Program-made: the position numbers and the translations under genes
The notes under the pieces: generated by a model
Databases searched by the model: none
Told to the model about the DNA's origin: nothing
Seen by the model: the letters and a program-made list of their open reading frames with translations, nothing else
Part shown: positions 34,198 to 64,000 of the stretch, in pieces
How the letters are laid out: every line of letters starts with the position of its first letter
Numbering within the stretch: position 1 is the first letter of the stretch
NCBI RefSeq assembly: GCF_020509005.1
Contig: NC_063021.1
Coordinates: 186,001 to 250,000, forward strand
Direction: 5' to 3'
Length of the DNA: 64,000 nt
Source of the DNA: Fulvia fulva
Taxonomy: Eukaryota; Ascomycota; Dothideomycetes; Mycosphaerellales; Mycosphaerellaceae

Positions 34198-35369
34198 CTA
34201 ACGAGCGGGCTATACTACCGAGCGGGCCACTTTTGCTAAGAACTATACCACTTCTATAGATATAGCTATATAACTACTATTATAGCGTATATTGTCTTTA
34301 AACGAGGCCAAACTGACCTTAGCTATCTAGGCTACGAAACGCGACGCGATAATCACGAATCGACTTACTATAAAGGTATACGACGCGTCTCGAACTATAC
34401 TAGGGTATCGATTGAATAGACGACCTCCTCGGGATAACTATAAGCCTAGTTCGAAGAAGCTTATAGAGCTAGAAGAGAGGGTGATACTTGAGTATATACG
34501 AGCTAGATCTTAGAGGTTTCCCGCTATTAAAGGCTAGTATACGGGTAATAGCTGATTTGTTACTATAAGAGAAGGGTCTTAAGCCCGCTAGTCTTAATTA
34601 GACAGACAGGTTTATTAGGCGGTATCGTGAGCTAAAGGTACGTATAACACGTAGATACGATCATTAGCGAGCCCTAATAGAAGATCTAGACGTTATCGAG
34701 AAGTAGTTCTTACTTATACGTAATATAAAGGAGAAGTATATATCCTTAACTAGGACACCTATAACTTCGGCGAGATAGGGTTTATAATAGGTATTATTAC
34801 GTCTTAGAGCGTCGTTACGGGTTTAGAAAGGCGTAGTAGAAAGAGGAAGGTCGTTTAATAGGGTAATAAAGACTAGGTAATAGTGATTAAGACTATCTAT
34901 ATAGACGGAATAGCGCTCCTACTCTACGTTATCCTTATAGGTAAATAGCACATTAGTACCTAGTACTAAGACGGCAACTTGGGTCTAGACTAGATAATCG
35001 GGCTAATAGAGAACGGCTAGACTAATAATAAGTTCGGTATACGGTAGCTAGAGCATTTTTAGAAGTATACTATAGCTCGTACGACTAGGGCATAGAGACT
35101 ACTTATTATTAGTGGCTACGAGAGCTATAACTCGAAGGCATTCTAGAATCTATATAAGGAATATAAGATCTTGGCCCTATATATACTATCGTACGTATTG
35201 TACTTACTCTAGCTATTAGATAAAGGTTGCTATTTGCCTTTAAAGAAGGTATACGGTACTTAGCTCTCGGGCTTAGCACGCTAGCATATTACTTATATCG
35301 ATAAAGTAGAGTTTCTACGCGCCTTCCGGGTAGCCTATAACGCTATATTTAGACAGGAGAACATCCTAT
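34198..35369 (+). mobile_element. Long Fot1/pogo transposon, 5' part (before LTR-element insertion)
   Basis: The left inverted repeat starts ACGTACTTTACTAACGAGCG after TA at 34196-34197. Unlike the 1133-bp copies it keeps the central DDE region: the YNFDETGF-type block (here FGETGF, near 34770), GNKDW-like near 34870, and then an extended catalytic-domain sequence including an ENGW block near 35010 and a DKVEFLRAFRVAYNA-like block near 35300-35345. It therefore represents the parent from which about 0.74 kb was deleted to give the short copies. TAG and other lesions show it is inactive. It is interrupted at the CCTAT target (35365-35369) by the LTR element. Confidence 0.82.
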
Positions 35370-35724
35370 TGTTACGGATCGGTTTGGGGAAGCTCCAGCC
35401 AACCAATCGATGCCTAGACACTAGTGGGAGAATCCGAAACTGATCAGCTCAGAGACCTTGGCAACTGAGCGCTCAGTCTGATCAGTATGACTCAGTGATC
35501 AGTCTGATCAGTATGCTCAGTGATCAGTCTGATCAGTTTGATCAGTTACGCCAAGACACGGCACTATATAGACGACGCTCTTTTGCAAGTAGATAGGAGC
35601 CTCGTGCTCAACTCATTTTAAGTATACACCATATACTGTTTGGGACCACTACCTTCTCAACGAGTCAGAGACATCATTGCAAAGATCCAAGCCCGGTTGG
35701 GATAACGTACAGCGGTTCCTAACA
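35370..35724 (+). repeat. 5' LTR of the gag-only element (355 bp)
   Basis: It begins TGTTACGGATCGG and ends GTTCCTAACA, with terminal TGTTA/TAACA inverted repeats. It contains a tandem array of TGATCAG/TCTGATCAGT units at about 35441-35548 and a TATATA stretch near 35565. No evident classical primer-binding site (TGG start) follows at 35725, so the primer is not identified. Confidence 0.93.
35441..35548. repeat. Tandem TGATCAG-containing repeats inside the LTR
   Basis: The palindromic core TGATCA recurs about every 10-20 bp (CTGATCAGCTCAG, TCTGATCAGTATG, GTGATCAGTCTGATCAG). A larger unit, CTCAGTGATCAGTCTGATCA, is present at least twice. The same array occurs in the other LTR at about 37605-37712. 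Arrays like this can be binding sites for a dimeric protein, but none is known to me for this sequence. Confidence 0.8.
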
Positions 35725-35756
35725 ACTTTGAGCACCACCACCAGGGCCCTTTGCAT

Positions 35757-36755
35757 ATGTCTGGGAGAGACGCTACCCGGAGTCCGTCAAGACAAGGAAC
35801 GCCACAGTCAACTGGCATCACGGAACGAATGAGCGAAATGTCGATTACTGGAAGCGGAAAACGATCAACACCCTCTGCAAGCTCGAACAGCATGCACGAG
35901 TTCACCAAGGCACCTAAGGTGTCACCACCGGAGACGTTCGATGGGACACAAGGGAAGCTGGAGGCTTTTCAGCTGCAGGTTCAGCTGTACCTCTACTTCA
36001 ACGCCCAACAGTTTAATGGCGAGGCCTCTAAGGTCTTGTACGCCGCATCCTTCCTAAGGGGCAGGGCAGCCCGGGGATTCAGACCATACCTCAAAGACTG
36101 GCTCAACAACCAGGACGAAGGAGACAACCCGAAGACAGAAACCCGGAAGATATTTGCCGACTACGATGAGTTCGAGATCAAGCTGAATGATCTCTACGGG
36201 ATACCTAACGAGGAGGTTCATGCCGACCGACATATCCGACAACTCCGACAAAACACCTCAGTCGCCGTATACGCCTCTGAGTTCCAAGGATATGCCGCCG
36301 ACCTCGAGTGGAACGACGCAGCGTTTCGTTCCCAGTTCTACCTAGGCTTGAAGGACAACGTCAAAGCCGAATTATCTCGAAACTCCAGTCTCACCAGCTT
36401 GGCCGCGATGGTCAAGGCTGCAAAGGAAATCGACGAGAGACTCCAGGAATTGAAGTACGACCGATTCGTACAGCCTGGATTCCAGAGACCCGCGAGAGGC
36501 GGAAGAGGGGGCTTCAAGGCCAGAAGTCACGACCCTGATTATGGAGATCCAATGGAACTCGACGCCACGGAAAGGCGCGGACGAAGCAAGCAGTTAACAA
36601 GAGATCTAACTTGCTATGCATGTGGAAAGAAAGGCCACTATGCTAGAGACTGTCCAAAGAAGAATGTTGTCAGCCGCGAGTTCAATGCGATGGATCGGGC
36701 GACAGCGACAAAGACGTACCAGGAATGCGAGGATTTCTTCTCGAAATCTGCCTAG
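35757..36755 (+). CDS. Gag protein of the LTR element (Ty3/gypsy type)
   Basis: The frame encodes 332 residues from the ATG at 35757. It is also open for two codons upstream (a TTG at 35751), but ATG is the likelier start, 32 bp after the LTR. The N-terminal 50 residues are Ser/Thr/Pro-rich. The central part (about residues 55-230) fits a retrotransposon capsid domain: PPETFDGTQGKLEAFQLQV near residue 57, LRGRAARGF near 104 and QFYLGLKDNVK near 193. A basic linker rich in Arg and Gly follows. A CCHC zinc knuckle C-x2-C-x4-H-x4-C (CYACGKKGHYARDC) lies at residues 286-299 and ends the nucleocapsid. The product should form the particle and bind element RNA. The stop TAG at 36753 has no pol frame after it. 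The coding sequence shows no RIP stops, unlike its surroundings. Confidence 0.93.
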   Translation: MSGRDATRSPSRQGTPQSTGITERMSEMSITGSGKRSTPSASSNSMHEFTKAPKVSPPETFDGTQGKLEAFQLQVQLYLYFNAQQFNGEASKVLYAASFLRGRAARGFRPYLKDWLNNQDEGDNPKTETRKIFADYDEFEIKLNDLYGIPNEEVHADRHIRQLRQNTSVAVYASEFQGYAADLEWNDAAFRSQFYLGLKDNVKAELSRNSSLTSLAAMVKAAKEIDERLQELKYDRFVQPGFQRPARGGRGGFKARSHDPDYGDPMELDATERRGRSKQLTRDLTCYACGKKGHYARDCPKKNVVSREFNAMDRATATKTYQECEDFFSKSA

Positions 36756-36862
36756 CAGAAACGACCTGACGACAAAGGCATCAAACAGCGGCTTCTTGAT
36801 TTGATGACCTAGGACACAGAAGTCAACAACAGCAACGGATAAAAGACTACTGGAACAATAAC

Positions 36863-37453
36863 TTACGACGATGAGGCCAGAGGAGGCACGACCCAAGGAA
36901 AAGAAGGATCGCACAGCTGGTTCCAATCCTGGACCGACATCTGCCAAGGATCGAATTCCTTGTACGACGACGCGGTCTCCACCCCAGCAGACTCCTCCAC
37001 TTCTTCCTCCTCCGCCGCCTCGAGATCTTCGAGCTCCTTCGCTACGGCGTCGTCGGCCTTGCCGGACGCGAGGCGAAGCTGTTTGCGAAGACGGATCTTC
37101 TTCGCCTTTTGGCGAATAATGCGCTGAGCGAGCTCGGCCTGCTGATGGAGAAGCTCCACCTCCTTCTCCTCCGCACGCTCGAGGTCTCGCTGGAGGCCAT
37201 CACGAACGTCGCGAAACTTCGTCCACTCGGGTGCGGATAAGGTCACGTCGCAATCAGAGTAACCCTTCCTCACACACTCCGAGCATTTTCCCGACCGGGG
37301 CGAAACGACACATTTTGGGCGCTGCTCGGTGGCAGCGACTCGAGCGGACCGACAGTGATGGCAGGGGGCCATCTCGATACCGGATCGTTGTATGTCGACA
37401 GCAAGGGCTTGTCGACGGAGGGAACTTTTGGAAGAAATGGAAGGAGGAGACAT
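36863..37453 (-). CDS. Antisense open frame in the LTR element: six-cysteine cluster and coiled-coil protein
   Basis: The frame encodes 196 residues from ATG at 37453 and is opposite in direction to gag. Residues 31-68 hold six cysteines spaced C-x2-C-x13-C-x8-C-x2-C-x7-C. This recalls the fungal Zn2Cys6 binuclear cluster, but the first loop is x13 instead of the usual x6. Residues about 85-135 are charged and heptad-like, predicted coiled coil (LERAEEKEVELLHQQAELAQ). Residues 140-158 are strongly acidic, and a Trp/Pro-rich end follows. There are no stops, introns or RIP scars. Its start lies 80 bp inside the 3' LTR border, so an antisense promoter in or near that LTR would be needed. I do not recognise the family. 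A captured host regulatory gene is possible but not shown. Confidence 0.7.
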   Translation of the reverse strand: MSPPSISSKSSLRRQALAVDIQRSGIEMAPCHHCRSARVAATEQRPKCVVSPRSGKCSECVRKGYSDCDVTLSAPEWTKFRDVRDGLQRDLERAEEKEVELLHQQAELAQRIIRQKAKKIRLRKQLRLASGKADDAVAKELEDLEAAEEEEVEESAGVETASSYKEFDPWQMSVQDWNQLCDPSFPWVVPPLASSS

Positions 37454-37519
37454 TGCGATGCCCAGGCAAACGATGAAGAACAGCGGGCTTATGTGAGAAG
37501 TTCCGGGACGGAACTAAGC

Positions 37520-37533
37520 TAGAAGGGGGATGG
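37520..37533 (+). other. Polypurine tract of the gag-only element
   Basis: TAGAAGGGGGATGG stands directly before the 3' LTR. It is the expected primer for plus-strand DNA synthesis. Its presence next to identical LTRs supports recent mobility. Confidence 0.8.
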
Positions 37534-37888
37534 TGTTACGGATCGGTTTGGGGAAGCTCCAGCCAACCAATCGATGCCTAGACACTAGTGGGAGAATCCG
37601 AAACTGATCAGCTCAGAGACCTTGGCAACTGAGCGCTCAGTCTGATCAGTATGACTCAGTGATCAGTCTGATCAGTATGCTCAGTGATCAGTCTGATCAG
37701 TTTGATCAGTTACGCCAAGACACGGCACTATATAGACGACGCTCTTTTGCAAGTAGATAGGAGCCTCGTGCTCAACTCATTTTAAGTATACACCATATAC
37801 TGTTTGGGACCACTACCTTCTCAACGAGTCAGAGACATCATTGCAAAGATCCAAGCCCGGTTGGGATAACGTACAGCGGTTCCTAACA
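37534..37888 (+). repeat. 3' LTR of the gag-only element (355 bp)
   Basis: It is the same length as 35370-35724 and I find no differing base by eye. It is followed by the target duplication CCTAT. Confidence 0.93.
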
Positions 37889-38272
37889 CCTATCGAGCTT
37901 TAGAGGCGCTAGTTTAGTTCTATTTAATCTATAGGTAGTAATAGATAAGCTTAATATCAAGCTACGTACGCTAACCCCTCTAGCTCCGGACTCTACCCCT
38001 TAGAAGTCGAAGATACTACAAACTATAAAAGAATTCGACTCTTAATCGACACTAGTAACGAACAAAATGCGTGCCCGGGCAGGTTTATCGCTAAACTCGT
38101 TATAGGAAGGGGTACATTAGCTTACAAAAGGGAGTAGAGAGACAGCGTATTAGATAGCTCTTATATAAAGCGAGATTGGTAAGCTACGTAAGTCTAACGA
38201 GGCCTTTATATAGCGGAAAGTACGAAAGCGTAAGTATATTTAGTCTAGAGGGTCTCTAACCTTCGATAAGGC
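37889..38272 (+). mobile_element. Long Fot1/pogo transposon, 3' part, right end lost
   Basis: It continues the transposase frame interrupted at 35369, starting in the C-terminal third. From about 38131 (GGGAGTAGAGAGACAGCG) it coincides with the tail kept in the 1133-bp copies. It breaks off at about 38272 (TTCGATAAGGCG) where LINE-2 begins, so the right inverted repeat is missing. Confidence 0.78.
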
Positions 38273-55662: not shown

Positions 55663-57602
55663 TCAAGCCATCTTCGTAATCTCAGAGTGCTCCGCTGCCA
55701 GCCCATCCTTATGCTGCGACACCACACTCCCATCCAGCGTCTCGCCAAAGACATCGACCTCCGTAGAAGCGAACTTGCGCGCAGACACCCTGCGCTCGAA
55801 TAACAGATCCATTTCCGCGAAAGTCCTGCCCTTCGGCTCTGGTACACGGAAGTATGTATAAATACAGCATAAGAAGGCCAGCCCGGCCCAGAAGAACCCA
55901 GCGAACGAGCCCCAGTCCCAAGCTGTCGGGTTGATCATGTAAGGCGTAATAGTCGAGCAAATGATAGCAGCGACGATGTAGAGGTTGCGACCTAGCACTA
56001 CCGTCTTGATCTGCAGGCGACGGGAGGAGATCTCGGCCACGAGGGAGTAGCATACTGTCCCGACAGTGAGCTGGTAGGTGAGAGCCCAGATGATCATGAT
56101 GCTTCCAGTCGCGAGTCCAGCAGTGTCTCTATCGTCGACAAGGCCCATGAATCCGATGATGAGCAGGAGAAGGGTAAGACCGCACAGACCGTATAGGTAC
56201 AGCGTCCGGCGACCGAAACCGAGAGACATGAGGCCCCAGGCCCCGAAGACACCGACCATGTTGATAGCGTACTGGCCCATGGCGAAGTCGTAGGAGTTTT
56301 CGGGACTGACGCCGGCTTGTTGGAGGAAGTATGTTGAGTAGTTGGAGAAGGAGTTGCCTGCGAGATTCTGGATCGCCCAGCACATACAGACGATTTCTGT
56401 GCGGCGGAGATCGGCGCCTTTGAAGCAATCGAGGTAGGATGCGCCGGAGGTGGTGGACATTTCGAGTTGGGTCGTGTGTGCCATCATGGCGATGGTTTCG
56501 TCTGCGTTGAAGTCGGTCTCGCGGTTCGTGGATGTGAGACGTAGGAGAGACTTCTTTGCGTCCTCAAGGCGTCCCTTTCTGACGAGCCACCTGTGGTTGT
56601 TAGAAACATTCAATGAATGCCATCAGTGTCTAACATACCATGGGCTTTCCGGAGCGAAGGCAACTCCAATGATGAGAGGTACAGGCCACATCCACTGCAG
56701 GGCGTATGGGATGCGGTAAGCCCATTGATCTGTGCGATTGAACTGGGACCGGATGACGCCAATTGCGATCAATTGGCCCAGTCCCCAACAGCAGTTGACA
56801 TAAGTGGTCAGGTATCCTCGCAGTGCGATCGGGCATACTTCCGAAGCGTAGGTGATGGTGATGGTCTGGAACACTCCCCATGGCATGCCTGGTCGAAGGT
56901 CAGTGTCTATCGTCCTACAAAGACGGCGTGGAATGCATCGCTCCATACTGACCGCACAAGATCTCGCCAATCAGGAGTGTCTCAATGTTTGGCGCAGTGA
57001 AGAAGATTGTAATGAACGCAATGATGAGTGCAAGACACGTCATCACGGTCTTGCGGTATCCAAATCGTTCAGATGCCCCTGCAGAAAAGGGTCAGTTTAT
57101 GTACTCATGAGTCAGTCCTGGGATAAATGCGCACATCCATTGATAAAGAGACCAATGAACTGGCCCACAAGAGCACCATTCGAAAGCCCAGCTTGCCACG
57201 GCGCCGACACCTTCGCACAAACATCAGCATCCAATCCACCTGACCAAATGTCTCGCCACCCACCTGATAAGGCGTCTCCGGATCCCCCGTCGGCTCGCCA
57301 TACTTCTCATTAAACGGCGCAAAGCCATAAAAGTTATTGACCAAAGCGAGCTGATACCCCTCCATCGCAATACAGGTAGAGATCAAAACACTCCACGCAA
57401 TCGCCTTGGGATAAAGTCTGACACCCTGGAGAAGTGTCATCTTCTGCTCCTCATCGGAGGCCTTCTTCGCATCGAGGACAGTCTGCCGTTTCGATTCCGT
57501 CATGTTAAGATCGTCGCCGTGGGACAGGTGGAGAGGACGTCCAGCTGCCTCGACTTCTGCTTTCTTCTCGCGGATGACGGAGGCCTGGCGGGGGTCTGCC
57601 AT
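55663..57602 (-). CDS. Major-facilitator sugar transporter, probably alpha-glucoside:H+ symporter
   Basis: Five exons on the minus strand: 57602-57264, 57210-57135, 57078-56953, 56888-56639 and 56590-55663. All introns are GT..AG, of 53, 56, 64 and 48 bp, and together the exons encode 572 residues. The protein has the sugar-porter layout of about 12 membrane segments with cytoplasmic ends. Signatures are NGWASERFGYRKT in the loop between segments 2 and 3, PESPWWLVRKGR after segment 6 (residues about 260-271), GRRT in the loop between segments 8 and 9 (about 390) and PEPKGRTFAEMD after segment 12 (514-525). RRTEIVCMCWAIQ is typical of fungal maltose/alpha-glucoside permeases. Expected role: proton-coupled uptake of maltose-like sugars at the plasma membrane. 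The substrate is inferred from family resemblance only. It shows no RIP stop although transposons flank it. Confidence 0.92.
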
Positions 57603-61447: not shown

Positions 61448-64000
61448 AGATAGATAGATGATTCATTTACCCGTTGTGGTGCCCTCCGGCCTATACGGGT
61501 TTATGTCTATATATGTTACTACATAAGGTAGGAAACCTATTCCTAGGTAAAAACCTCCTCTCCTTCTCTAATAGCTTCCTTGCCATGAGTTCTCAGTTTT
61601 CCTTCCATTAGGGTGCACTAGTGTCATGGTGGTTAGCCTCTGACTACCTTGTCTGCAACCCTAGAGTTGTCCCCCTCTTCCTGCTCTCCTCCTCCTTCTT
61701 TCTCTCCTCAATCCATCTCTCTGTTTCCCTAGTAAGAGAGAACTGCTCCAAAAATCCTTGGTGGATGATCCACCTTGTAATTCTCTGGAGGTCTCCCTTA
61801 TTGCTGATCATGGCTTGGAAGTTTCTGTTCCTTGCCCTTGCCCTCCATTCACCTCTCCCTGTACTCCATTCTTTGCAAACCAGAAGTCTATGTTCGACAT
61901 TCTGGGACAGGTAGCCGCATGGGCAACTCTTGTCTTCGATACCTGGGACTTTTCTCTGATGCAGGTATGCCCTGACTCCGATGTGTTCAGAGCGGATTTG
62001 TATTGCTATGCTTGCTTCTGACCTGGTCAGGTCTGAGTACAGTAGGTAGTTGTGGCTACCAAACTGTTGGAGTGCCTTTGGGGTTCCTGGCCTCTGTGGG
62101 GCTCTTGTCCATTCAGTCTTCCAGAGGAGTCCTGCCATCCTTTCAGCTAGAGACTGTTGCTTCTTCCCTTGGCTGGCTGCTGATCCTCTCCCTTGAGCCC
62201 TTCTGTCCTGTTCCTGCTGGGCTAGGTGCAGCTGTTCTGTTAGTTCTTTGAACTTCTGCAGGTCCTGCTGCTTCTGTGGGGCTGGATTGGGTCTTGCTTG
62301 TCTGTGCCTTCTTGTGCACTGGCTCCTGATTTTGTTGACTGCCTTCTGGATTACTAGCTAGGCTGGGTATGCAGACGTCTTTCCTGCATACTGGTATCTC
62401 AACCCTTGAAGGTAGAGCTTGGCTGGTGGGGAGCCAGACTCCATTTCGACCACCCTTGTTGGAGTTGACTTGTATGCTCCAAGCACCTTTTTCAGACAGG
62501 AGGCTTGGGCTCTGCTGATGGGATCTGCAATTCTCTTTGGGATCTTGTCTTGGGCTGACCAGATCTGGGCTCCATATAGCATGGCTGGCTTCACAATGGC
62601 CTTGTACATAACCTTTGCTTTCGCAAATGTGGCTCCCCATGTGGAGGCTGTAAGCCTGTCAATTGATTGCCTGTTGTTGTCTGCTCTTGCCTGTGCTTTC
62701 TTGACCTGTGGTCCCCAGCTGAGCTTTGGATCCATCCATATTCCTAGCACCCTTAATTCACTTGAGGGTTCTGTTGTGTGTCCCTGAATAGTGATTGGGG
62801 CTTGCATATTGTGTCTGTTTCTGGCTCTACTGAAGTGGATGAGTTGATACTTCTCTGGGGCAAATCTGGCTCCATGTTTCCTGGCCCATTCCTCACATTC
62901 CTTATGTTTCTTCTGCAAGATTCTGCAGTTCTCTTCTGTGCTGTCTGACCAGGCTAGGATGTTTGTGTCATCTACAAACCCTGAGGCTGATGTGTTTCTG
63001 GAGTTTAGCTTTGCTGGCAGGTCTGCCATAAAGAGGAGAAACAGGATTGGAGACATTGTTGATCCCTGTGGGATTCCTGTCTCTGTAGGCATGCTGTCAG
63101 ATTTGTATCTGCCCAGTCTTAGTCTTGTGGTTCTGCCTCTGAGGAAGGACTGGATAAACTGGACTGTCCAGTTAGGGATAGCCTTCTGTTTCAGGATGTG
63201 GATCAGCCTCTGGTGTGAGACATTGTCAAAGGCTCCTGATATGTCTAGTGAGAGGAGTGTGGCTGCTTTGTTGTTCCCAAAGTGCCATAGGGTCTTGATC
63301 TGCTCTGTGATAAGTTCCACAGCTGTTAGTGTTGATCTTTGTTTCCTGCCCCCCATCTGTTCTTCAGGAAGGATTCCATGTTCTTCAGCTAGGTTTGTCA
63401 GCCTTTCTGCTATGATCTTTTCCAGGAGTTTGCCTAGTGTGTTGAGCAAGGCAATAGGTCTGTATGCCTTTAGCTTTGTGTAGTCCTCTTTCTGTGGTTT
63501 TCTCAAGACCACAGTCAGTGACTCCTTGAAGTGTTTAGGGCAGTGTCCTTGGGCCATGCACTGTGAAAAGATGTTTGACAGTGCAGGGGAGATCTGGTCC
63601 TTGCATGTCTTAATGAACAAGTTTGGAATCCCATCTGGTCCTGGGGCCTTGTTTCCTGAGAGTCTCTTAATGATGCTCTTGATCTCTCGCTCTCCCACTA
63701 TGCAGGATTGCTCTAGTGGTGTTGGATACACACTGCCCTCCAGATCCTGCAGGTCAGCTTCTACCTGTGTGCCAAAGAAATGTTTCCACAATGCCTGTGC
63801 CTTTCCTGGGAGAGTGTGTTGGATTACTCCTTCCTGGTCTTCAATGTTTGGAAACTGGGGCAGCATGTTTCTGTCCTGTGTGGGTTGTCTTGCCCACTTT
63901 GCTAGTTTCCACATCTTCTCAGGATTCTGGGTAATGGATCCAACTGTTGACCTCCACTCCAGCATCTTGTCCCTCTTGATCTGGGCCTTCTTGTCTCTGG
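61448..64000 (-). mobile_element. LINE-1: almost unmutated Tad-like non-LTR retrotransposon, 3' part
   Basis: It lies on the minus strand. The tail (complement GATAGATAGATGATTC) begins at 61448, the 3' untranslated region runs to 61643, and ORF2 covers 61644 to the window edge. Composition is ordinary, with abundant CA and TG, so it escaped most RIP and is recent. It is related to, but distinct from, LINE-2. The 5' half with endonuclease and ORF1 lies outside the window. Confidence 0.9.
61644..64000 (-). pseudogene. LINE-1 ORF2: reverse transcriptase with one in-frame TAG, 5' end beyond window
   Basis: The frame is open from the window edge to a single TAG at 62358-62360, then open again in the same frame to the stop at 61644. 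Counting from the Met at 63965, reverse-transcriptase blocks are GNKAPGPDG (104-112), LDISGAFDN (240-248), GIPQGSTMSP (297-306) and the catalytic FVDD (330-333). A thumb and connection region continue to about residue 535. After the TAG, about 240 further codons include a Gln-rich linker and a C-P-C-G..H..C cluster (about 61870-61830) typical of LINE C-termini. The TAG probably derives from CAG by one C-to-T at CpA. The product may be truncated but still holds the reverse-transcriptase core. No RNase H domain is seen. Confidence 0.88.

What the first reader, a model, noticed from the sequence alone, without database searches (positions are those of the whole stretch)
35370..37888. Young gag-only LTR retrotransposon with a second gene in antisense
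Seen: two 355-bp LTRs with no difference found by eye, a perfect CCTAT target duplication, a polypurine tract, an open gag with a zinc knuckle, no pol, and an open 196-codon frame on the opposite strand. Known: gag-only (TR-GAG) elements are described in plants, and antisense genes are known in a few LTR elements. Inference: this is a mobile, non-autonomous fungal element carrying an antisense passenger that may help or regulate it. It sits, unmutated, inside RIP-destroyed DNA, so it arrived after the main RIP activity or was present in too few copies to be targeted.
Basis: partly seen in the sequence, partly recalled or inferred. Interest (0 to 1): 0.8.

Follow-up and report, generated by a model that had tools for sequence, protein, structure and literature searches.

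The report
Gag-only retrotransposon with antisense zinc-cluster gene
A short jumping element in a fungal genome, apparently unable to copy itself alone, carries a gene on its opposite strand that looks like a small fungal gene switch, and that gene seems to be traded between element families together with the stretch of promoter it may control.

Summary
In detail: two identical 355-bp LTRs, CCTAT target duplication, intact gag with zinc knuckle, no pol, intact 196-codon antisense frame, inside RIP-degraded DNA. It is not a lone locus: at least 23 near-identical copies, two sister gag-only families (10 and 19 places) and pol-bearing relatives (one read whole, with chromodomain integrase).

The antisense frame is no passenger. 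In all seven families examined a relative sits antisense before the 3' LTR: six cysteines (invariant in 28 of 28 aligned proteins; exact Gal4-type Zn2Cys6 spacing in 81 of 134 homologues, but not in this element, whose first loop is longer), then a long coiled coil and an acidic tail. The only PDB matches to the model of a pol-bearing relative's version are two DNA-bound Pho7 chains (weak, E 0.2-0.4); Pfam Zn_clus stays below cut-off.

R-U5 is 90-99% alike within three groups of families while U3 and antisense gene differ, so these two appear to be exchanged together; five of seven U3s carry repeat arrays. Best reading: a trans-mobilised gag-only element whose antisense gene encodes a transcription factor for its own U3. 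Antisense genes are known (brtn of Boty). Unexplained: 13 of 13 variable antisense-gene sites are A-to-G on the genomic-RNA strand.

The parts
35365..35369 (.). target site duplication CCTAT (5' copy)
35370..35724 (+). 5' LTR, 355 bp, TGTTACGG...TAACA
35370..35547 (+). upstream U3, the block that differs between sister families; array of TGATCA palindromes (over 35370-35564: 7 TGATCA; CTGATC or its complement 11 times, 0 of 500 shuffles)
35565..35572 (+). TATA-like core promoter TATATAGA; from here R-U5 is 97-99% shared with sister families A2 and B
35604..35611 (+). GTGCTCAA, proposed 5' end of the RNA and self-primer (complementary to the PBS)
35725..35735 (+). primer binding site ACTTTGAGCAC; not a tRNA-type TGG; pairs with R over 8 nt
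35757..36755 (+). gag, 332 aa: Retrotrans_gag domain and CCHC zinc knuckle
36863..37453 (-). antisense gene, 196 aa: six-cysteine zinc-cluster-like head (C31-C68), coiled coil (about 74-152), acidic tail with conserved W177
36804..36868 (.). 3'-side mosaic break: DNA identity to A2 ends at 36804 and to B at 36868, between the gag stop and the end of the antisense gene
37499..37515 (+). stem-loop AGTTCCG-GGA-CGGAACT before the polypurine tract; inverted repeat at the same place in all seven families, stems differing (weak in B)
37522..37533 (+). polypurine tract GAAGGGGGATGG
37534..37888 (+). 3' LTR, identical to the 5' LTR; its U3 lies directly upstream of the antisense gene, so it could drive both directions (inference)
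37889..37893 (.). target site duplication CCTAT (3' copy)

Best explanation
A young, non-autonomous Ty3/gypsy-type LTR retrotransposon that makes its own Gag but borrows protease, reverse transcriptase and integrase from pol-bearing relatives in the same genome. It probably self-primes in the Tf1 manner: the 5' end of its RNA pairs with the PBS. The antisense gene, probably driven backwards from the U3 of the 3' LTR, encodes a small zinc-cluster-like (Zn2Cys6/Gal4-like) coiled-coil protein with an acidic tail that binds the repeat array in U3 and regulates LTR transcription, more likely as an activator. Antisense gene and upstream U3 form one cassette (factor plus operator), contiguous at the 3' end of the genomic RNA, that has been exchanged between families by template switching. 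SHOWN: anatomy, copy number, TSDs, antisense gene in all seven families examined with conserved cysteines, mosaic blocks, U3 repeat arrays in five of seven families, PBS/R complementarity with two covarying positions. INFERRED: borrowing of enzymes, RNA start, binding of U3 by the protein, sign of regulation, antisense promoter, template switching.
For: Mobility without pol: at least 23 copies at 99-100%, 16 of 23 with perfect TSDs, no pol domain; gag dN/dS 0.26 (A/A2), 0.20 (A/B), 0.23 (A2/B), so Gag is kept functional. Helper candidate: FL1 has RVP, RT, RNase H, integrase and chromodomain in an open frame; FL1, FL2 and FL3 have the same LTR start and near-identical ends and tract. Zinc cluster: six Cys invariant in 28 of 28; 81 of 134 homologues with exact canonical spacing; two named homologues (Cercospora kikuchii, Elsinoe australis) carry the source label 'Zn(2)-C6 fungal-type domain'; profile comparison with 20 of this genome's 103 Zn_clus matches: FL1-type E 1.9e-5, probability 78, six Cys in register, coiled-coil control probability 0.1; Foldseek of the FL1-version model gives two PDB chains only, both Pho7-DNA, probability 0.84 and 0.77. 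Cassette: R-U5 is 97-99% alike among A, A2, B; 92% FL1/D1; 90% FL2/FL3; U3 in the same pairs only 37-48%, and the antisense proteins differ too (A/A2 44%, FL2/FL3 42%; D1 is 56% like A). U3 arrays reach 0 of 500 shuffles in A, B, FL1, FL2, D1. Self-priming: TTGAGCAC pairs GTGCTCAA in A, A2, B; TTGAACGCC pairs GGCGTTCAA in FL1, FL2 and is present in FL3 and D1; where measured the R site starts 35-39 nt after the TATA start.
Against: Pfam Zn_clus is below cut-off in every antisense protein scanned (2 of 92 at best E 0.064). In this element's own protein the first loop is 13 residues, not 6, and its profile aligns to host Zn_clus with probability only 59 and with the third Cys out of register. 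Its own model found no zinc-cluster match. The Pho7 matches are weak (E 0.21, 0.37). Two of seven families (A2, FL3) have no significant U3 array. A and FL1 share TGATCA repeats although their antisense proteins are only 27-32% identical, while A and A2 (44-49%) do not, so motif and protein kinship do not match simply. Joint exchange may mean only that the two parts are neighbours. dN/dS of the antisense gene could not be judged well: saturated or undefined (FL1/FL2 0.17, FL1/FL3 0.23, FL2/FL3 0.37; A/A2 undefined). 7 of 23 copies carry missense changes, three hitting invariant C68, so it looks dispensable in cis. No RNA data; intact helpers not counted.
Confidence: 0.58

Rival explanations
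1. The antisense protein is a repressor or copy-number controller of the element (in effect like Ty1 p22 or HTLV HBZ, recalled), not an activator; antisense RNA may add silencing of the sense RNA.
For: Antisense position, overlap with the sense RNA, and missense copies that are nonetheless integrated. The review PMC7264820 (passages) proposes regulatory protein and/or dsRNA roles for such genes.
Against: The acidic tail with conserved W fits an activator better. A trans-acting repressor gives no advantage to a copy that loses it.
Confidence: 0.27
2. The antisense protein is a structural or nucleic-acid-binding accessory (particle assembly, nuclear import, integration targeting) and the link with U3 is only one of map position.
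For: A Cys-rich head plus long coiled coil also fits assembly or RNA binding; Pfam does not call Zn_clus; adjacent blocks travel together under template switching anyway.
Against: Canonical Zn2Cys6 spacing in 81 of 134 homologues, profile match, Pho7 as the only PDB matches of the FL1-version model.
Confidence: 0.25
3. The antisense frame is a chance open frame without function.
For: 7 of 23 copies have missense changes, including loss of invariant C68 in three.
Against: 236 homologues at E<=1e-3, six invariant cysteines in 28 of 28, no stop in 23 of 23 copies, same place in pol-bearing families.
Confidence: 0.02
4. The element is a decaying deletion derivative of one pol-bearing family, amplified once and doomed.
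For: Gag-only elements usually arise by internal deletion (recalled).
Against: The closest gag in a long-frame element here is only 43% identical; gag-length relatives at 49-76% identity occur in other samples, one named Hortaea werneckii, in a supported clade of 28 rows (98/98); dN/dS 0.20-0.26. Caveat: that search admits only proteins of 183-581 aa, and FL1, the only long-frame gag in the tree, is on a long branch.
Confidence: 0.1

Closest known systems
TR-GAG (terminal-repeat retrotransposons with GAG, plants)
   Same: Two LTRs, intact gag, no pol; transposition of one Arabidopsis TR-GAG detected, proteins presumed to come from a relative (PMC8704663, passages)
   Different: Here a second conserved gene lies in antisense, the host is a fungus, and no resident pol-bearing element with a close gag was found
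Boty of Botrytis cinerea with antisense gene brtn (Zhao et al. 2011, not held)
   Same: Fungal LTR element with gag-pol, chromodomain and an additional antisense gene (PMC7264820, PMC8365987, PMC4227169, passages)
   Different: Boty carries pol.
Grande gene23, RIRE2, Retand, PvRetro13 antisense aORFs (plants)
   Same: Antisense gene between pol and 3' LTR, function unknown, nuclear in Grande (PMC7264820, passages)
   Different: No zinc cluster mentioned in those passages; PvRetro13 ORF2 is said to hold an SMC domain
Tf1/Tj1 self-primed elements
   Same: PBS complementary to the 5' end of the element's own RNA (PMC4600332, passages)
   Different: 8-9 nt complementarity here, predicted only
Gal4-type Zn2Cys6 transcription factors (Pho7, LAC9, LEU3)
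   Same: C-x2-C-x6-C-xn-C-x2-C-x6-C in most homologues, coiled coil behind it
   Different: Below Pfam cut-off; loop 1 enlarged in this element; only about 170-220 aa, no large regulatory domain
HTLV HBZ (recalled)
   Same: Antisense-encoded coiled-coil regulator read from the 3' LTR
   Different: bZIP, unrelated sequence; analogy only

Membership tests
TR-GAG / gag-only LTR element | two LTRs, TSD, PPT | tested here: met
TR-GAG / gag-only LTR element | intact gag, no pol | tested here: met
TR-GAG / gag-only LTR element | gag is the single ORF | tested here: not met
   second conserved antisense gene
Ty3/gypsy | RT-RNaseH before integrase in pol | not testable with these tools
   element has no pol; met for its relative FL1
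Ty3/gypsy | Gag of Retrotrans_gag/Ty3_capsid type | tested here: met
   PF03732 E 2.4e-10 above cut-off; PF19259 Ty3_capsid E 5e-4 below its cut-off
Tf1-type self-priming | PBS complementary to 5' end of own RNA | tested here: inconclusive
   8-9 nt match with two covarying positions; RNA 5' end not mapped
brtn of Boty | antisense gene upstream of the 3' LTR of a fungal LTR element | tested here: met
brtn of Boty | sequence homology to BRTN | not tested
   BRTN sequence not at hand; source paper not held
Zn2Cys6 zinc cluster | six Cys as C-x2-C-x6-C-x5-12-C-x2-C-x6-8-C (pattern recalled) | tested here: not met
   this element: loop 1 is 13; met in B, FL1, FL2, FL3 and in 81 of 134 homologues
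Zn2Cys6 zinc cluster | Pfam PF00172 above cut-off | tested here: not met
Zn2Cys6 zinc cluster | fold of a zinc-cluster domain | tested here: inconclusive
   FL1-version model: two Pho7-DNA chains the only PDB matches, E 0.21 and 0.37; own model none listed
Zn2Cys6 zinc cluster | zinc binding and sequence-specific DNA binding | not testable with these tools
   needs bench work

The most novel reading that the evidence does not exclude
A lineage of fungal LTR elements carries its own Gal4-type transcription factor in antisense, facing an operator array in U3 that can fire both ways; the factor-operator cassette is swapped as a unit between autonomous and gag-only families, giving element families their own transcriptional switches. 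Where sense and antisense RNAs overlap, the genomic RNA suffers strand-specific A-to-G changes before reverse transcription, a dsRNA-editing-like signature in a kingdom without known ADARs (recalled).
Probability: 0.33. Interest if true: 0.82.

Novelty: new variant of a known kind. Interest (0 to 1): 0.62.

Why it matters
The function of antisense genes in LTR retrotransposons is stated as unknown in the review seen here (PMC7264820, passages). This lineage gives a concrete, cheap test: does the zinc-cluster-like protein bind the repeat array of its own U3 and not that of a sister family? If so, transposon families own transcription switches that they trade by recombination. It also suggests that gag-only elements in fungi can form an old lineage with a selected Gag rather than dead ends.

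Tried and rejected
Chance ORF: rejected by homologues and invariant cysteines. Single-locus element: rejected. tRNA priming: the PBS does not start with TGG and pairs with R instead. RIP as source of the A/G sites: rejected; G-to-A by RIP on this strand needs a preceding T and only 2 of 13 sites have one (contexts), the three RIP-degraded relatives have A at all 13, and one site lies in the codon of invariant C68. Sequencing error tied to a chromosome strand: unlikely, affected copies lie on both contig strands. Hairpin-directed editing: the local fold of 37150-37300 is no stronger than shuffles (z 0.16). A-to-G as a general feature of the lineage: not supported. Family B (11 of 19 copies read, mostly the more divergent ones): 2 A-to-G among 13 variable antisense sites, 10 RIP-type, 1 G-to-T. 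A2 (8 loci of 6 copies): 2 sites, neither A-to-G, both at the end of one match. FL2 (3 copies): one C-to-T, one G-to-A. Relatives in viral contigs: one scan, none confirmed. Structure searches with this element's own antisense model: no zinc-cluster match listed, only unrelated or coiled-coil rows; viral library with the FL1-version model, nothing at E below 6. PDB profile search: LAC9 E 0.12 and LEU3 E 1 among mostly unrelated or coiled-coil hits with the A2 alignment, none with A1 or FL1 alone; not used as proof. Papers (open-licence PMC only): searches joining antisense, gypsy, Zn2Cys6, zinc finger or brtn found nothing on a zinc-cluster antisense gene (none; one Morchella genome paper, listing only; one Monilinia paper, one brtn passage seen); TR-GAG search, ten papers, all on plants by title or abstract start; fungal A-to-G hypermutation, one Rhizoctonia paper, listing only. 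Zhao 2011 and the first TR-GAG paper were not held.
Full report
OBSERVATION. The element stands at 35370-37888 as described: identical 355-bp LTRs, TSD CCTAT, polypurine tract, gag 35757-36755 (332 aa) with Retrotrans_gag and zinc knuckle, no pol domain, antisense ORF 36863-37453 of 196 aa. Flanking DNA shows RIP (TA/AT about 2), the element does not (0.69).

COPIES. A DNA search of the host genome (67 Mb, 14 contigs) with the internal part gave 23 places at 99-100% over the full length (40 of 57 candidates scored, so a lower bound). All 23 were read (L009-L031): 16 have a perfect 5-bp TSD; of the other seven, four form one tandem array on C1 sharing LTRs, with matching outer flanks; one (L013) lies in a triplet spaced 29,780 bp on C11 and has the left flank of one neighbour and the right flank of the other, as unequal crossing-over would give; two lack a perfect TSD for reasons not followed up (L015, L031). 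LTR pairs: 16 of 23 identical, 6 with one difference, 1 with six, all C-to-T or G-to-A (L025). Three further copies at 86-88% are RIP-wrecked. The family was thus RIPped before and has since amplified. A search with the upstream U3 alone (178 bp; 40 of 51 candidates scored) found only family-A places.

SISTER AND HELPER FAMILIES. The gag search (121 of 585 candidates scored) shows two more gag-only families: A2 (10 places, 96-98% protein identity) and B (19 places, 77-79%). Apart from RIP-wrecked copies and fragments (identity up to 80%), the next gags are 36-43% identical and lie in frames of 668-798 codons; I group them by frame length and identity as FL1 (5 places), FL2 (13) and FL3 (15, one with a TGA). 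Ten more places at 29-30% in 430-codon frames were not examined. One FL1 copy was read whole: LTRs 372 bp, gag frame, then an open pol frame with protease, RT, RNase H, integrase and chromodomain. For FL2 and FL3 only the ends were read; pol is inferred from the 4.6 kb between gag and antisense gene. The genome search with the FL1 pol did not complete, so intact helpers were not counted. Gag-only and pol-bearing families share the LTR start TGTTACGG and, with one exception, the end TAACA (one FL3 5' LTR ends TAATA), and a GGGGATGG-type tract.

ANTISENSE GENE. The protein search in this genome hits 78 places: all 23 of family A, 9 of 10 A2 (the tenth, L037, is truncated or interrupted), 5 of 5 FL1, 15 of 15 FL3, 7 of 13 FL2, and RIP-wrecked ones. 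B was not hit but has a 167-aa antisense gene of the same kind, whose DNA is present at 19 full-length places. Outside this genome: 46 homologues with one sequence, 236 with the alignment (120 listed, 7991 candidates scored). Six cysteines are invariant in 28 of 28 aligned. Of 134 retrieved homologues 81 have the exact Zn2Cys6 spacing, 42 have the six Cys with another spacing (41 of them with a first loop of 10-14 residues, as here), and 11 lack the full motif. Against 20 Zn_clus domains taken from 103 matches in this genome the profile comparison gives E 1.9e-5, probability 78, for the FL1-type, with six Cys in register, and 9.2e-5, probability 59, for this element's type, with the third Cys out of register; a coiled-coil control gives 0.1. 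AlphaFold models: this protein pLDDT 87, one helix from 74 to 152, no zinc-cluster match listed; the FL1 version pLDDT 83, whose only two PDB matches are Pho7-DNA complexes; that Pho7 is a Zn2Cys6 factor is recalled. Against: Pfam Zn_clus stays below cut-off in all scanned. I call it zinc-cluster-like.

MOSAIC. From the TATA box through R, U5, PBS and the first part of gag, A, A2 and B are 88-100% identical in 40- or 60-base steps; A and A2 stay at 77-100% through gag while B ranges from 57 to 93%; then identity collapses in the antisense gene and the upstream U3, apart from the stretch around the polypurine tract. The same is seen in two other groups: R-U5 is 92% alike in FL1 and D1 and 90% in FL2 and FL3, while their U3s are 44% and 48% alike, no better than between groups. 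D1, a RIP-wrecked element with FL1's PBS, has an antisense gene 56% identical to A's, and an A-like repeat array in U3 by eye. In genomic RNA order (R-U5-gag-antisense-U3-R) the changed part is one contiguous block, so template switching in reverse transcription is the simplest route. L031 carries a gag tract shared with A2 copy L036, a further sign of recombination. U3 arrays: A 11, B 5, FL1 6, FL2 8, D1 5 copies of the top 6-mer, none reached in 500 shuffles; A2 and FL3 not significant (101 and 112 of 500); R-U5 is never significant. A and FL1 share TGATCA, so the arrays are not all private. The U3 of the 3' LTR lies between the antisense gene and the sense core promoter and could serve both (inference).

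PRIMING AND 3' HAIRPIN. Directly inside the 5' LTR, TTGAGCAC (A, A2, B) is complementary to GTGCTCAA in R, and TTGAACGCC (FL1, FL2) to GGCGTTCAA; two positions covary, and the R site starts 35-39 nt after the TATA start. The FL-type pair is also present in FL3 and in the 5' end of D1. Self-priming as in Tf1 is likely but needs RNA ends. Before the polypurine tract all seven families have an inverted repeat 27-30 nt from the LTR with differing stems; in five of seven at most 42 of 2000 single-base shuffles reach it, FL2 101 and B 363.

AGE OF THE LINEAGE. Gag dN/dS is 0.20-0.26 among A, A2 and B; for the antisense gene the estimates are saturated or undefined. A search with gag found 32 proteins, one at 70% named from Hortaea werneckii; a tree puts A, A2, B and 25 of them in one clade (98/98), with FL1 outside but on a long branch. 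The search admits only 183-581 aa, so long gag-pol frames could not appear; that the clade is gag-only elsewhere is suggested by protein and contig lengths, not shown.

A-TO-G. All 13 variable sites in the antisense gene of family A are A-to-G on the sense strand, in 7 of 23 copies, clustered; 9 of 13 change the protein. Invariant C68 becomes R in three copies, nearly invariant W77 becomes R in three. Sites shared among copies mean fewer independent events than 13. Elsewhere the picture is mixed: of 19 variable gag sites, 10 are seen only in L031 and 3 only in L009/L010 (recombinant tracts), and of the remaining six three are A-to-G; of two sites between antisense ATG and 3' LTR one is A-to-G and one G-to-A. 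RIP cannot explain the antisense sites. The genome shows one A_deamin match, which would fit tRNA deaminase Tad1 (recalled). The B, A2 and FL2 copies read do not show the pattern. I leave it as real but unexplained; dsRNA-dependent deamination of the genomic RNA where it overlaps the antisense RNA would fit.

HOST. Unnamed; named homologues (Cladosporium, Cercospora, Elsinoe, Cryoendolithus, Hortaea; also weak Fusarium and Rhodosporidiobolus hits) suggest a dothideomycete, inference only.

VERDICT. The anatomy is certain and of a known kind; gag-only elements and antisense genes each have precedents. What I found in no held paper is the combination, the zinc-cluster-like nature of the antisense protein and its exchange together with U3, which makes the function of this kind of gene directly testable.

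Noticed in passing
36863-37453 across L009-L031: 13 of 13 variable sites are A-to-G on the sense strand, clustered in 7 of 23 copies; not RIP, source unknown.
   Followed up: partly
37499-37515 and the same place in L036, L069-L073: Stem-loop with differing stems, mostly around a GGA loop, 27-30 nt before the 3' LTR in all seven families examined.
   Followed up: partly
G000 C1:11152315-11161314: Four internal parts sharing five LTRs in a tandem array with a 2161-bp period and matching outer flanks.
   Followed up: partly
G000 C11:1743371-1805446: Three copies at 29,780-bp spacing; the middle one has hybrid flanks, as from element-mediated unequal crossing-over (or an assembly artefact).
   Followed up: partly
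G000 FL2 family: Only 7 of 13 FL2 gag places have an antisense hit at the expected distance, so the others may carry a different antisense gene.
   Followed up: no
62358-63965 (-): 535-codon open frame with a reverse transcriptase domain (RVT_1, E 6e-38) at the right end of the window.
   Followed up: no
55663-56613 (-): Open frame with a sugar transporter domain (Sugar_tr, E 2e-44), near the less RIP-affected right end of the window.
   Followed up: no
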